NCBI RefSeq assembly: GCF_000379125.1
Contig: NZ_KB900626.1
Span: 2,800,667-2,864,666 of the forward strand
Direction: 5' to 3'
DNA: 64,000 nt
Source: Methylosinus sp. LW4
GTDB lineage: Bacteria; Pseudomonadota; Alphaproteobacteria; Rhizobiales; Beijerinckiaceae
The notes under the pieces are model-generated. The model searched no databases. It saw nothing but the letters and a program-made list of their open reading frames with translations, and was not told the origin of the DNA. Below are positions 52,595 to 57,659 of the stretch, piece by piece. The position numbers were made by a program, and so were the translations under genes. The number at the start of each line of letters is the position of its first letter. Positions within the stretch are counted from its first letter, which is position 1.

Positions 52595-53161
52595 ATGTCC
52601 GAAGCTATGACGACAGAGCATCTCGAGCATGCCGAGCACGCCGAGCACGTCGCCCATGAAGGCACGCCCTTCATGACGCAAGTGTCGCTGACGATCGCGA
52701 TATTCGCAGTGGTCGCAGCGACCATCGGCAGCCTGGAGACGATCGAGACCGCCGCCACGCTCGGCGCGCAGAACGCCGCCGCGCTGAGCCAGAGCAAGGC
52801 CAGCGATCAATGGGCCTTCTTCCAGGCCAAGAGCATCAAGAAGAGCGTCAATGAGGCGGTCTCGAAGCAGGGCGGCCCGCAGGCCGATCAGCTCTCCCGC
52901 GAGGCCAAGCGCTATGACGACGAGAGCAAGGCGATCAAGACCGACGCCGAGGCGCTCGAGCATCGCGTCGAGGAGCATTTGCACGAGGCCGAGCATCACG
53001 AGCATCGCCACCATATTCTGACCATGGCGGTGACGCTGCTGCACGCAGCCATCGCCATAGCGACGATCGCGATCATCACCCGCGGCCGCAAATGGCCGTG
53101 GTATTCCGGCCTCGCTCTCGCCGCCTCTGGCGTTCTTCTCGCCGGCTACGCCTATATTTGA
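52595..53161 (+). CDS. DUF4337 family membrane protein
   Basis: The 188-residue protein starts with an acidic and His-rich segment (EHLEHAEHAEHVAHEG) that might bind metals. It has one membrane helix (about residues 29-47), a charged helical middle (KKSVNEAVSKQGG to VEEHLHEAEHHEHRHH), and two more helices at the C-terminus (about residues 142-160 and 167-185). This layout is that of DUF4337, common in proteobacteria, with no known function. CACGAAGGATGG before the ATG gives a good ribosome site. Confidence 0.85.
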   Translation: MSEAMTTEHLEHAEHAEHVAHEGTPFMTQVSLTIAIFAVVAATIGSLETIETAATLGAQNAAALSQSKASDQWAFFQAKSIKKSVNEAVSKQGGPQADQLSREAKRYDDESKAIKTDAEALEHRVEEHLHEAEHHEHRHHILTMAVTLLHAAIAIATIAIITRGRKWPWYSGLALAASGVLLAGYAYI

Positions 53162-53376: not shown

Positions 53377-54957
53377 ATGTTTGCATTGAGCGAATGGCTC
53401 TTCGGCGTCGACAATTTGACGCCGCATGGTTTCTGCCTCCTCTGGGAGCCGGGCCTGATCTGGCTCTTCGCGATCTCCGACGGCTTGATCGCGCTGGCTT
53501 ATTTCTCCATCCCGCTGGCGCTGGTCATCATTGGGCAGAGACGCGCGGATCTCGTGTTTCGGCCATTGCTCTGGCTGTTCGCCGCCTTCATCCTGCTCTG
53601 CGGCGCCACGCATTGGCTCGATGTCGTGACCTTGTGGAAGCCGATCTATGGCGTGCAGGGAGTCGTCAAGGCGGCCACGGGGCTCGCCTCGCTCGGCACC
53701 TCGATCGCGCTGTGGTGGTGGCTGCCGAGCTTTCTCGCTCTGCCCTCGCCCGATCAGCTGCGCAGGGCCAACGCCGCGCTGCGGGAGAGCGAGGAGCGCT
53801 TGGCCCATGCGCAGAAGATGGAGGCGATCGGCCAGCTGACGGGCGGCATAGCGCATGATTTCAACAATGTGCTGCAGGTAGTCATCGGCTCGCTCGGCGT
53901 CATAGAGCGGCAATTGGCGCGCGGGCGCGCCGAGGAGATCGGCCCCTCGGTGGCCGCCATTCGCAAGGCGGCGAGCTCGGCCTCCAATCTCATCGATCGC
54001 CTGCTCGCCTTCTCGCGCCGGCAGACGCTGCTGCCGCGCGTCATAGAGCCGGACAGGCTGGTCGTCGGCCTCGAAGATATGCTGCGGCGCACGCTCGGCT
54101 CCGGCGTCGAGCTCGATCTGCGGCTCGGCCGCTGCCGGCGCAGCGTCGTCTGCGATCCGTCGCAGCTCGAGAGCGCGCTGCTCAATCTCGCCATCAATGC
54201 GCGCGACGCCATGCCGGCCGGCGGCGTGCTCGAGATCGCGACGGCGGATCGCCGTTTGGCCGCCGACCCCGCCGACCCGGATCTCACGCCCGGCGATTAT
54301 GTGGAGATCAGCGTGAAGGACAATGGCGCCGGCATGAGCCGCGAGGTGCTGGCGCATGTCTTCGAGCCTTTCTTCACCACCAAGCCGACGGGGCGCGGCA
54401 CTGGCCTCGGCCTCTCGCAGATTTATGGTTTCGTGAAGCAGTCCGGCGGCTTCGTGCGCATCGACAGCGCGCCGGGAAAAGGGACCAATGTGCGCCTCTA
54501 TCTGCCCGGGCGCGATCAGAGGGAGGTCCAGCCGGCGGAGGCGGCTGTCGTGGAGCAAAAGCAAGGCTGCCCTGCCGCGCCTTGCGGAAAGATGCTGCTC
54601 GTCGAGGATCAGCTGGAAGTGCGAATGCAGATCGCCGACACGCTCGAGGAGATGGGCTGCGAGGTCATAGAGGCCGATGACGGAAACGCCGGGCTGAAGG
54701 TGCTGGAGTCGGAGCAGAGCCTATGTCTGCTGGTCACAGACGTCGGCCTGCCGGGCGTCAGCGGACGCCATCTGGCCGAAGCCGCCCGCGCCGCCCACCC
54801 TGATCTGCCCATATTGCTCATCACCGGCTATGCCGGCAAATCGCTCGACAGCCTCGATCTCGCATCGAACATCGAAGTTCTGCGCAAGCCCTTCACCCTC
54901 GAGGAGCTGACCGAGCGCGTGCGCATTCTGCTGTCGCGCGCCGCGGCCGCGGAATAA
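53377..54957 (+). CDS. Hybrid histidine kinase with ethylene-receptor-type sensor domain
   Basis: The 526-residue protein has three N-terminal membrane helices (about residues 27-50, 63-79 and 95-117) that match the plant ETR1 ethylene-binding domain: SDGLIALAYFSIPL and FILLCGATHWLD. Asp 35, Tyr 42, Cys 75 and His 79 are each exactly ten higher than ETR1 Asp 25, Tyr 32, Cys 65 and His 69, the copper- and ethylene-binding residues. Then come a kinase H-box (GGIAHDFNNVLQ, His 160), the ATPase domain (LLNLAINARDAM, VKDNGAGM, GTGLGLSQIYGF) and a receiver domain with Asp 455 (LLVTDVGLPG). The ATG at 53377 was preferred to GTG at 53368. The output partner is unknown. Confidence 0.9.
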   Translation: MFALSEWLFGVDNLTPHGFCLLWEPGLIWLFAISDGLIALAYFSIPLALVIIGQRRADLVFRPLLWLFAAFILLCGATHWLDVVTLWKPIYGVQGVVKAATGLASLGTSIALWWWLPSFLALPSPDQLRRANAALRESEERLAHAQKMEAIGQLTGGIAHDFNNVLQVVIGSLGVIERQLARGRAEEIGPSVAAIRKAASSASNLIDRLLAFSRRQTLLPRVIEPDRLVVGLEDMLRRTLGSGVELDLRLGRCRRSVVCDPSQLESALLNLAINARDAMPAGGVLEIATADRRLAADPADPDLTPGDYVEISVKDNGAGMSREVLAHVFEPFFTTKPTGRGTGLGLSQIYGFVKQSGGFVRIDSAPGKGTNVRLYLPGRDQREVQPAEAAVVEQKQGCPAAPCGKMLLVEDQLEVRMQIADTLEEMGCEVIEADDGNAGLKVLESEQSLCLLVTDVGLPGVSGRHLAEAARAAHPDLPILLITGYAGKSLDSLDLASNIEVLRKPFTLEELTERVRILLSRAAAAE

Positions 54958-54962
54958 TCCGC

Positions 54963-55982
54963 TCAGCCGGAGGCGAGCAGCGCGACCGCGCAGGCCGGCG
55001 CGCAATCGGCGGCGGCGCTCGCGGCCTCCGGGACCGCATCGATGAATTCGGCGATGTCGCGATAGGCGCGGCCTTCGGAGAGAGCCAGGCGCGCGACGAG
55101 CGCGCGGCCGACGCCGGCGCCGATGATGGGCGCGTCTTCCGCCACCGCCGCGCGCGAGCGCAGCAGCGCGATCTGATCCTCGATCGAGCGCATTTGCGCG
55201 CGGGCGAGAAAATCGGCGAAGGCGCGCCATTGGGCGGGCGAGGCCTCGGCGGCGTCGCGGCCCGCGAGCCGGGCGAGGCGGGCGATCGACTCGGCGACGC
55301 TCTTGCCGCGCCCGTCCGCGGTCGGCTCGGCGTCCTCTGCGGCGAGATCGCCGGTCACGCGGCGCACATCGGCCATGGTCGCGAAATTCTCGCGCGCCGG
55401 CGGCGTCCAGCGGCCCGCAAAGGGCGCGAGCGTCACGCCGGCGAGCGGATCGCCGCGCGAGAAGCCCGTATAGACCAGCTCGCCATTGGCGAGGCGCTCG
55501 GCGTCGCCGCCGCCGATGGCGCCGACGCGGCCGCCGGAAATAGGAACGAGATCGGTCGTCGTCGAGCCCATGTCGACGAACAGCGCTTGCGGGAGGCGCC
55601 GCGCGACCAGCTCCGCGCTCGCCCGCCAATTGGCGGAGGCGATGGCCTGCGCCGCGCCGCGAACCTCGGCGAAGGGCAGGAAGCCGCCATCGCCGGCGTA
55701 GAACAGCGCCTCGCCCTTCACGCGCCGGGCGACCGCGGAGGCGATCGCGGCGACACCGGCGGCGCGCGTCTCGAACGCGTCGGAGAGCTCGGCCGTCATG
55801 GTGATGGCGAAACGATCGGCCGAGCCGAGCCGGGCGGCCGCCTCCTCTATCGCGCCCTCGAGCCGCGCGAGGCCGTAATGCGGATTGCAGGGCAGCAGCA
55901 GCACCTCGACGATCCGCCCATCGATGGCGCGCGCGGCTTTGAGATGCGCGCCGCCTATGTCGAAGCCGATGACGCTGGCCAT
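54963..55982 (-). CDS. H4MPT-linked C1 transfer pathway protein, hydantoinase/ATPase-like
   Basis: The 339-residue protein begins VIGFDIGGAHLKAARAIDG, an actin/hydantoinase-like phosphate loop, and contains FVDMGSTTTDLVPI and VAEDAPIIGAGVGRALVA. This matches the TIGR03123 type found only with H4MPT-dependent methylotrophy; the reaction is not established. The ATG at 55982 gives the family N-terminus; an in-frame ATG 30 codons earlier lies in a palindromic repeat. It is convergent with the ethylene-type kinase gene, five bases between stops. Confidence 0.88.
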   Translation of the reverse strand: MASVIGFDIGGAHLKAARAIDGRIVEVLLLPCNPHYGLARLEGAIEEAAARLGSADRFAITMTAELSDAFETRAAGVAAIASAVARRVKGEALFYAGDGGFLPFAEVRGAAQAIASANWRASAELVARRLPQALFVDMGSTTTDLVPISGGRVGAIGGGDAERLANGELVYTGFSRGDPLAGVTLAPFAGRWTPPARENFATMADVRRVTGDLAAEDAEPTADGRGKSVAESIARLARLAGRDAAEASPAQWRAFADFLARAQMRSIEDQIALLRSRAAVAEDAPIIGAGVGRALVARLALSEGRAYRDIAEFIDAVPEAASAAADCAPACAVALLASG

Positions 55983-56005
55983 GAGCCTTTCCGTTTCGAT
56001 CGCGC

Positions 56006-56123: not shown

Positions 56124-56633
56124 TCAGTTGGCGCCGAAAGGATGCTTGACGTCGTTGCGCTTGGCGACGACCTCGGCGGCCTTCGGCTCGCCCTTGATGG
56201 CGCGGGCGATGGCTTCCTTGGTGGCCTGATAGTTGTACTCTTGGATCTTCTTGTCGTCGTTGGCGTCCCAATGGATGAACACGCCGACCGAGATGAAGAG
56301 GTCGTCGGCCTCGGCGAGCGGGATCACGCCCTCGGCGACCGAATCGGCGACGGCCTTGGCGACGCCGGCCTGCGCCGGTCCGAACATCTGAACGGCCTGC
56401 TTGGCGTTCTTGATGGTGACCTTGTTGAAGAGGATCGTGTTCGGCTTGGCCAGCAGGTTCGGCGCGACGACGGCGAGCAGAGTGGTGAAGCCGTCCTTGT
56501 TGTTGACCAGCGCATTGGCGAAGGCGGTCTCGGCGGCGCTGCCGCGCGGTCCGATCAGCAGGTCGATGTGAGCGACCTCATTGCCTTCGCCGACGAGCGA
56601 CTCGCCGACCAGAAGCTTGTTGATCACGGCCAT
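56124..56633 (-). CDS. fae: Formaldehyde-activating enzyme
   Basis: The 169-residue enzyme joins formaldehyde to tetrahydromethanopterin, giving methylene-H4MPT. The start [20 protein letters not shown] is the canonical N-terminus, and the catalytic His is residue 22 ([15 protein letters not shown]). Other fixed parts are [16 protein letters not shown] and [27 protein letters not shown] precedes the ATG. It lies 135 bases after mtdB on the same strand and has its own terminator. It is one of the strongest signs of a methylotroph. Confidence 0.98.
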
Positions 56634-56768
56634 TTTCTTTTCCTTATGGCTTATCGCTGGGGGAATCCGAGCGAGGGAAGACGAGCCGCCGTCATCAATC
56701 ATTTTCGCATGACAGCGGCAAGTCGGGACGAAACCGTCGGGACGAGGCCCGATCCAGATTCGAGCGGC

Positions 56769-57659
56769 TCAGAGCAGGCTGCGCGCCAGCGCGAAAGCGT
56801 GGCGGAAGTCGAGACGCAGCGGCTTGTCAGAAGTGGTCATCTGCTTGAAGAGACCGGCCTCCGTTCCGTATTTGATGTCGCCGATGGCGAGCGCGCCGAT
56901 GCCGAGCGCGCCCGACGGCAGCTCGACGCCCTTGTCGTGCAGCTTGACGCCCTCGACGCCGAGCGGCGGCACGGCGTTGACGTCCGCGGCGATGAGCAGC
57001 GATTTGGCGGCGGCGAGATCTTCCGCGGACAGAACCTGCACGCCGGCGCGGGCCGCGCAGAGCGCGATCTCATGCTCGACGAGAAGCGCGCGCACCTGCT
57101 CGGCCTTGCTGCCGTCGGCGGGCGTCACCTTCACGCCGAAGCGCTTCTCGATCTCGTCGGCCTGGGCGGTCACGCGCTCGAGGCCGCTATAGCCGACGAT
57201 CGTCACCTCGGCGCCCTCGAGCGCGGCGATGACGGCGGAGGAATAGCCGACGACGCCGGTCGCGCCATAGACGACGATCTTGGCGCCCTTGAGCTCGCGG
57301 CCCTTCTTGTCGCGCAGCACCTTCTCGACGAAGGCGACCATGGCGCCGGCGGTGGTGAAGGAGCCATAGGGGTCGGCGAACAGCGAAATCTCGAAGGGCT
57401 TCAGCAGCGCCTTCTCGGCGGCGTCCAGCATGTCGAGCGCGAGCACGGCGTCACGGCCGGCGAAGAAAATTCCGGTGCGCAGGGCGGCCGAGGGCGCGCG
57501 GGAGAACATCGCGTCCTGCACCAGCGCCGTCACCTCGTCGAGAGTGACATTCGTATAGGGGACCGCCACGTCGAAGCCCGCGTCGAGCGCCATGTTGACG
57601 TCGAACGGGCTCATATGCTTCAGCGTGCTCAACATATGAAGGATCGATTTGGCGGCCAT
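56769..57659 (-). CDS. mtdB: NAD(P)-dependent methylene-tetrahydromethanopterin dehydrogenase
   Basis: The 296-residue enzyme oxidises methylene-H4MPT to methenyl-H4MPT. The substrate part is at the N-terminus (HMLSTLKHMSPFDVNMALDAG), and a Rossmann fold with VVYGATGVVGYSSAVIAA binds the nucleotide. The adjacent fae supplies its substrate. The length fits the MtdB rather than the shorter-range MtdA type, and the company of H4MPT genes supports this. mch, the next enzyme, is not in the window. TTAGGAATTTCCC precedes the ATG. Confidence 0.94.
   Translation of the reverse strand: MAAKSILHMLSTLKHMSPFDVNMALDAGFDVAVPYTNVTLDEVTALVQDAMFSRAPSAALRTGIFFAGRDAVLALDMLDAAEKALLKPFEISLFADPYGSFTTAGAMVAFVEKVLRDKKGRELKGAKIVVYGATGVVGYSSAVIAALEGAEVTIVGYSGLERVTAQADEIEKRFGVKVTPADGSKAEQVRALLVEHEIALCAARAGVQVLSAEDLAAAKSLLIAADVNAVPPLGVEGVKLHDKGVELPSGALGIGALAIGDIKYGTEAGLFKQMTTSDKPLRLDFRHAFALARSLL

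What the first reader, a model, noticed from the sequence alone, without database searches (positions are those of the whole stretch)
53377..54957. Bacterial ethylene-receptor-like histidine kinase among C1 genes
Seen: the N-terminal three-helix region matches the ETR1 ethylene-binding domain. The ligand residues Asp, Tyr, Cys and His have exactly the ETR1 spacing (each ten residues later), within FSIP and LLCGATH contexts. Known: ethylene binding through Cu(I) at that Cys/His in plants and in cyanobacterial homologues. Inference: in a methylotroph or methanotroph the ligand could be ethylene, a known methane monooxygenase co-substrate, or the site could sense copper. The gene stands beside H4MPT genes and is fused to a receiver domain rather than to a separate regulator.
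Basis: partly seen in the sequence, partly recalled or inferred. Interest (0 to 1): 0.8.

Follow-up and report, generated by a model that had tools for sequence, protein, structure and literature searches.

The report
Ethylene receptor kinase in methane-eating bacteria
A methane-eating soil bacterium carries a gene that looks like a complete version of the receptor plants use to smell the gas ethylene, and close relatives keep it, so whether these bacteria sense a gas known to block methane removal in soil can now be tested.

Summary
Window 53377-54957 (+) encodes 526 aa: Pfam ETR1_N at residues 27-122 (E 2.1e-33), then HisKA, HATPase and a fused receiver. The seven residues that ethylene binding needs in ETR1 (list partly recalled) are present: D35, Y42, I45, P46, I72, C75, H79; so is K98. 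The domain is 49% identical to AzoEtr1, which binds ethylene experimentally. The host is a Methylosinus methanotroph.

ETR1_N proteins are in 9 of 10 Methylosinus genomes. Orthologues in a second pmoA-bearing genus form one supported clade with them, but 24 of 51 pmoA-bearing genomes have none. All three domains are under purifying selection.

The C1 setting is real but not evidence of function: six of nine Methylosinus carriers share it, two hold the gene beside coaBC, one is at a contig end, and the non-carrier's C1 cluster lacks it.

Best reading: a Cu(I)-dependent ethylene receptor, a new member of a known kind. Binding, copper and output are untested. A dedicated copper-switch sensor is less likely, because carriers without sMMO-type genes exist.

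The parts
53377..54957 (+). Complete gene: ethylene-binding-domain hybrid histidine kinase, 526 aa
   Evidence: ETR1_N in 9 of 10 Methylosinus genomes
53377..53745 (+). Ethylene-binding domain (residues 1-123; ETR1_N profile match 27-122) with D35, Y42, I45, P46, I72, C75, H79 and K98
   Evidence: ETR1_N 2.1e-33; residue check; 49% identity to AzoEtr1 over 142 aa
53830..54024 (+). HisKA domain (residues 152-216), phosphoacceptor His160
   Evidence: HisKA 3.8e-07; His in 31 of 31 aligned proteins
54154..54507 (+). HATPase_c catalytic domain (residues 260-377) with N274, D315 and G341
   Evidence: 4.6e-20; residues in 31 of 31
54595..54924 (+). Fused receiver domain (residues 407-516) with E410, D411, phosphoacceptor D455, T483 and K504
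   Evidence: 3.7e-14; phosphoacceptor D in 30 of the 30 aligned proteins that have the domain
52595..53161 (+). Upstream neighbour, DUF4337 protein; 215-bp gap before the receptor gene
54963..55985 (-). Convergent downstream neighbour, hydantoinase/oxoprolinase-like protein
56124..57659 (-). fae (56124-56678) and mtdB-type gene (56769-57659); context only

Best explanation
This is a working bacterial ethylene receptor. Three N-terminal membrane helices form a dimeric site in which Cys75 and His79 of helix 2 hold Cu(I), helped by Asp35 of helix 1 and Lys98 of helix 3, and ethylene binds that copper. Binding changes (most likely lowers) autophosphorylation of His160; phosphate then passes to the fused receiver Asp455 and onward to an unidentified phosphotransfer protein or regulator. 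The methanotroph thereby reads ambient soil, root or rice-paddy ethylene, a gas that its own methane monooxygenase turns into toxic epoxyethane, and adjusts attachment, carbon/nitrogen balance or stress response. Shown here: domain order, ligand and catalytic residues, purifying selection, conservation across Methylosinus and part of a sister pmoA-bearing genus. Inferred from ETR1, SynEtr1 and AzoEtr1: three helices, dimer, copper, ethylene binding, direction of signalling. Pure inference: the regulated functions.
For: ETR1_N 114.9 bits against cut-off 27. All seven binding residues plus K98 present. 50 of 56 relatives aligned carry all seven; the six misses are three kinase-less EBD proteins with Pro to Ser, G079 with Ile to Met, the Rhodovastum plasmid copy with Asp to Ser, and one copy cut by a contig end. 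69 of 142 residues identical to AzoEtr1, whose first 130 residues bind 14C-ethylene (PMC11819568). Kinase residues in 31 of 31 and receiver Asp in 30 of 30 proteins. dN/dS 0.04-0.45 in all three domains over nine pairs. ETR1_N in 9 of 10 Methylosinus genomes; one supported clade with g18 (99/96). Methanotroph host. Ethylene is described as toxic to methanotrophs and 1-15 ppmv in soil pore gas (PMC11507031, introduction).
Against: No binding, copper or expression data were found for this protein. It is not needed by all methanotrophs: 24 of 51 pmoA-bearing family members have no ETR1_N match, among them 18 of 31 in g18 and one Methylosinus. Hydropathy gives two clear hydrophobic stretches; the third helix did not reach the threshold used, and structure prediction never ran. 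No separate regulator gene is next door. The ComA gene of G000, used as a proxy for epoxide detoxification, is not in such a cluster; EtnE itself was not searched.
Confidence: 0.75

Rival explanations
1. The domain senses copper rather than ethylene: Cu(I) occupancy of Cys75/His79 sets kinase activity and informs the copper switch between sMMO and pMMO.
For: The family's copper ligands are intact. Among the 51 pmoA-bearing genomes, EBD carriers are commoner with PF02332 (sMMO-type) genes, 13 of 15, than without, 14 of 36; Fisher p 0.002.
Against: 14 carriers have no PF02332 match, nine of them with the orthologous type, and two genomes with PF02332 lack an EBD. Within g18 alone the link is 5 of 7 against 8 of 24, p 0.10. 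The non-copper binding residues (D35, Y42, I45, P46, I72) are also kept. EBDs occur in bacteria without PF02461: 47 of 346 family members.
Confidence: 0.12
2. The site binds another small pi-ligand of importance to methanotrophs (acetylene, CO or propylene), and ethylene is incidental.
For: The chemistry of Cu(I) allows it (general knowledge). The host's MMO can meet several such gases (inference).
Against: All seven residues needed for ethylene binding in ETR1 are kept. A. brasilense and Synechocystis, both with verified receptors, are reported to respond to ethylene down to about 1 ppb (PMC11819568).
Confidence: 0.1
3. The kinase is part of C1 (H4MPT) regulation because it lies in that gene cluster.
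For: Six of nine carriers in the genus share the site.
Against: In G004 and G009 the gene is beside coaBC. G007 has the C1 cluster with about 30 bp between the aligned ends of the two genes that flank it in the window. Convergent orientation with the downstream gene and a 215-bp gap upstream. The six C1-site copies form one subclade, 100/99, as expected of a single relocation.
Confidence: 0.04

Closest known systems
AzoEtr1 of Azospirillum brasilense (PMC11819568)
   Same: Alphaproteobacterial EBD at the N-terminus with identical numbering of D35, C75, H79 and K98; 49% identity in the domain; histidine kinase output.
   Different: AzoEtr1 has a PAS domain and a separate small response regulator gene; here Pfam finds no PAS, and the receiver is fused. 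The kinase parts are only 29% identical.
ETR1 of Arabidopsis
   Same: Same ligand residues at +10 numbering. A fused receiver too (recalled).
   Different: ETR1 has a GAF domain (recalled); Pfam finds none here.
SynEtr1 of Synechocystis
   Same: Ethylene receptor that signals by histidine kinase activity, as described in PMC11819568.
   Different: SynEtr1 also senses light and signals to a separate regulator; its sequence was not compared here.
PRK13557-type hybrid kinases (NCBIfam NF010076)
   Same: Residues 136-522 match profile positions 148-536 of 540, 364 bits.
   Different: Below the family cut-off of 631; the N-terminal part of that profile is not matched, and the EBD stands in its place.
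Novosphingobium sp. ES2-1 plasmid EBD kinase
   Same: 45% identity over EBD plus kinase, 373 aa.
   Different: The receiver is a separate gene directly downstream.

Membership tests
Ethylene receptors (ETR1_N / EBD family) | Match to the ETR1_N profile over its whole length | tested here: met
   114.9 bits against cut-off 27, profile positions 2-97 of 97
Ethylene receptors (ETR1_N / EBD family) | Seven residues required for ethylene binding in ETR1 | tested here: met
   D35, Y42, I45, P46, I72, C75, H79; that there are seven is in PMC11819568, which ones is partly recalled
Ethylene receptors (ETR1_N / EBD family) | Three transmembrane helices | tested here: inconclusive
   Hydropathy shows two clear stretches only; structure prediction never ran
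Ethylene receptors (ETR1_N / EBD family) | Histidine kinase output with catalytic residues | tested here: met
Ethylene receptors (ETR1_N / EBD family) | Saturable ethylene binding | not testable with these tools
   needs a 14C-ethylene assay
Ethylene receptors (ETR1_N / EBD family) | Cu(I) cofactor at Cys/His | not testable with these tools
   ligands present; copper not measured
PRK13557-type hybrid kinases | Whole-protein score over the curated cut-off | tested here: not met
   364 against 631 bits
Two-component metal-sensing kinases with a periplasmic sensor (CusS type) | Recognisable periplasmic sensor domain | tested here: not met
   no such Pfam match at E up to 1

The most novel reading that the evidence does not exclude
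Methylosinus and Methylocystis-type methanotrophs use a dedicated ethylene receptor to tune methane oxidation (or attachment and nitrogen fixation) to ethylene before epoxyethane damage sets in, so part of the known inhibition of soil methane uptake by ethylene is a regulated response rather than only poisoning of the enzyme.
Probability: 0.2. Interest if true: 0.8.

Novelty: new member of a known kind. Interest (0 to 1): 0.5.

Why it matters
[quoted passage not shown] That paper puts the toxicity down to epoxyethane made by the monooxygenase. A conserved, intact ethylene-receptor gene in a methanotroph genus makes a second possibility, sensing, directly testable with one gene deletion, and could link plant ethylene to methane flux in rice paddies and forest soils.

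Tried and rejected
A functional link to the C1 cluster was rejected because the site is not shared by all orthologues.

Kinase neighbour as partner: the clustering seemed to put one GAF-PAS hybrid kinase near the orthologue in five g18 loci. On checking, its sensor part is found in only 2 of 15 g18 loci, beside the split second copy of G180 and in G341; the other three had been lumped in, probably by their kinase domains. Not a general partner.

Link to epoxide detoxification: ComA (PF02679) was used as a stand-in for the coenzyme-M route. It is in 22 of 51 pmoA-bearing genomes, including 10 of 10 Methylosinus. In G000 it follows an MmgE/PrpD-like reading frame and no etnE-like cluster was seen among the frames listed, whereas G239 has a cluster resembling the published one (my reading of reading frames). 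It is a poor marker, so this test is inconclusive; EtnE itself was not searched.

Enrichment of EBDs in pmoA-bearing genomes: 27 of 51 against 47 of 346, p 2e-9. These genomes are related, so the p-value overstates it. By genus it is 3 of 3 against 17 of 40 (tallies), chance about 0.09 worked by hand.

Gammaproteobacterial methanotrophs were not sampled. The AMO-bearing family tried instead (f93) has 8 of 125 genomes with a hit, 7 over cut-off; gene copy number and genome sizes suggest ammonia oxidisers (inference).

The PDB sequence search with the EBD found nothing up to E 10. Viral contigs gave no relative.

Rows left out: the alignment used 56 relatives; the weaker matches L022 and L024-L026, and those of L132-L157 not refetched, were not aligned. 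From the tree I also dropped L111 (truncated), L158, L176 and L181 (kinase-less), L160 (long multi-domain), L161 (370 aa), L180 (contig end) and L189 (duplicate). Of 45 inner branches 15 are starred and 19 are open. One search used only proteins of 515-560 aa. One search kept the best 80 of 502 relatives, most matching the kinase part only; 3 of the 80 loci hold an EBD match.

Names not given by any tool: g18 as Methylocystis and G004 as M. trichosporium OB3b are inferences from pmoA, relatedness, genome size and contig count. dapB and MmgE/PrpD are my readings of reading frames.

Full report
WHAT IS THERE. The reading frame 53377-54957 (+) starts with ATG and encodes 526 residues. Pfam gives ETR1_N (residues 27-122, E 2.1e-33), HisKA (152-216), HATPase_c (260-377) and Response_reg (407-516), all above their curated cut-offs. 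It is the only ETR1_N match found in this genome.

LIGAND SITE. D35, Y42, I45, P46, I72, C75 and H79 are all present, and K98 too. PMC11819568 (abstract, introduction, first results section, first part of the discussion and passages read) states that AtETR1 D25, C65, H69 and K91 correspond to AzoEtr1 D35, C75, H79 and K98. The window protein has the same residues at the same numbers. Its first 141 residues are 49% identical to AzoEtr1 of A. brasilense Sp7 (69 of 142 columns), taken from plasmid ABSP7_p1. The first 130 residues of AzoEtr1 bind 14C-ethylene. Of 56 relatives aligned, 50 carry all seven residues. The exceptions are three kinase-less EBD proteins (Pro to Ser), G079 (Ile to Met), the Rhodovastum plasmid protein (Asp to Ser) and one copy cut by a contig end.

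KINASE AND RECEIVER. His160, N274, D315 and G341 are present in 31 of 31 aligned proteins of 515-560 aa; the receiver phosphoacceptor D455 is in 30 of the 30 that have a receiver. AzoEtr1 has none, its regulator being a separate gene. The kinase-receiver part resembles NCBIfam PRK13557 (364 bits, under its cut-off of 631) and then CckA models. So an ethylene-binding domain stands where that family has another N-terminal part.

HOST. Named relatives with 70-87% identity are Methylosinus sporium DSM 17706, Methylosinus sp. Ce-a6 and Methylosinus sp. Sm6, the only 3 of the 80 loci kept there with an EBD match. The genome has three PF02461 (pmoA/amoA-type) matches and two adjacent PF02332 matches of the sMMO type.

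DISTRIBUTION. ETR1_N is in 9 of 10 genomes of the genus, 24 of 150 relatives, 74 of 397 of the family (73 over the cut-off) and 22 of 327 of the class survey; each count includes the window's own genome. In the family set 51 genomes have PF02461. Of these 27 have ETR1_N: genus g1 9 of 10, g18 13 of 31, g41 5 of 10, against 47 of 346 without PF02461. So 24 of 51 lack it, which shows repeated loss or patchy gain. The full-length g1 copies and one copy in each g18 carrier are one orthologous type of about 520-550 aa, 65-97% identical over the full length, while g41 copies are other EBD proteins. G156 and G180 have further EBD genes of other or broken form. A tree of 50 EBDs puts the 22 g1 and g18 rows in one clade (99/96), with family members without a PF02461 match and a Rhodovastum plasmid protein outside. 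One of the 22, G293, gave no PF02461 hit.

SELECTION. Nine pairwise comparisons give dN/dS of 0.04-0.45 in the EBD, kinase and receiver. The gene is kept in working order.

PLACE IN THE GENOME. The neighbours are C1/H4MPT-type genes. The same site is used in G000 (the window), G001, G002, G003, G005 and G006, which form one subclade (100/99). In G004 and G009 the gene lies between a molybdopterin-binding-domain gene and coaBC. Four g18 genomes (G251, G263, G336, G293) hold it in the same general neighbourhood, between a 2OG-oxygenase gene and a histidine-phosphatase gene among the conserved frames, which suggests that this is the older site. G008 is cut by a contig end. G007 lacks the gene and has about 30 bp between the aligned ends of the flanking genes. 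The C1 setting is therefore best read as a later relocation in one subclade, and not as evidence of function. No neighbour recurs widely enough to name as partner.

COPPER RIVAL. Of 27 pmoA-bearing carriers, 14 have no PF02332 match, nine of them with the orthologous type, so the protein is unlikely to be solely a copper-switch sensor. The overall association (13 of 15 against 14 of 36, p 0.002) weakens within g18 (5 of 7 against 8 of 24, p 0.10).

WHAT IT MAY DO. [quoted passage not shown] The word receptor does not occur in its main text. Ethylene or loss of AzoEtr1 reduces biofilm and root colonisation, and ethylene causes PHB accumulation and C/N changes in Azospirillum (abstract). Similar outputs are plausible for Methylosinus; this is inference.

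NOVELTY. Bacterial ethylene receptors are known, and putative ones in many proteobacteria have been noted. Searches for ethylene receptor with methanotroph, Methylosinus with ethylene and histidine kinase, ethylene receptor with Methylocystis, ETR1 with Methylosinus (no paper) and a set including Methylobacterium (10 of 40 papers listed) showed no paper on a methanotroph's own ethylene receptor. I saw listings only, except PMC10504283, one passage (on a plant receptor), and PMC11819568 above. Subscription papers and supplementary lists were not seen, so the gene may already stand in such a list. Verdict: new member of a known kind, in an organism where the ligand matters.

Noticed in passing
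L158:8236-8850 (-), L176:7676-8233 (+), L181:273-917 (+): A kinase-less protein with an ETR1_N domain (1.3e-33 for L158; about 185-205 aa in L158 and L176) occurs in three pmoA-bearing genomes of two genera (G156, G247, G317), 73-78% identical. It keeps the Asp, Tyr, Cys, His and Lys but has Ser for the Pro. It may be a copper- or ethylene-binding membrane protein without its own output.
   Followed up: partly
L161:9066-11579 (+) and L171:10270-11451: A GAF-PAS-HisKA-HATPase-receiver hybrid kinase lies near the EBD kinase in 2 of 15 g18 loci examined (G180 beside a split second copy, G341).
   Followed up: yes
L203:9048-9869 (+): ComA-like phosphosulfolactate synthase gene in 10 of 10 Methylosinus genomes, beside an MmgE/PrpD-like reading frame in G000; no coenzyme-M cluster seen there. 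Its role is unclear.
   Followed up: partly
L195-L201 (family f93): EBD proteins also occur over the cut-off in 7 of 125 genomes of a family with an AMO-bearing member, probably ammonia oxidisers (inference).
   Followed up: no
L124:3983-6820 (+): A Rhodovastum plasmid EBD protein groups with the methanotroph type but lacks the helix-1 Asp and the Lys, so it may not bind ethylene.
   Followed up: no
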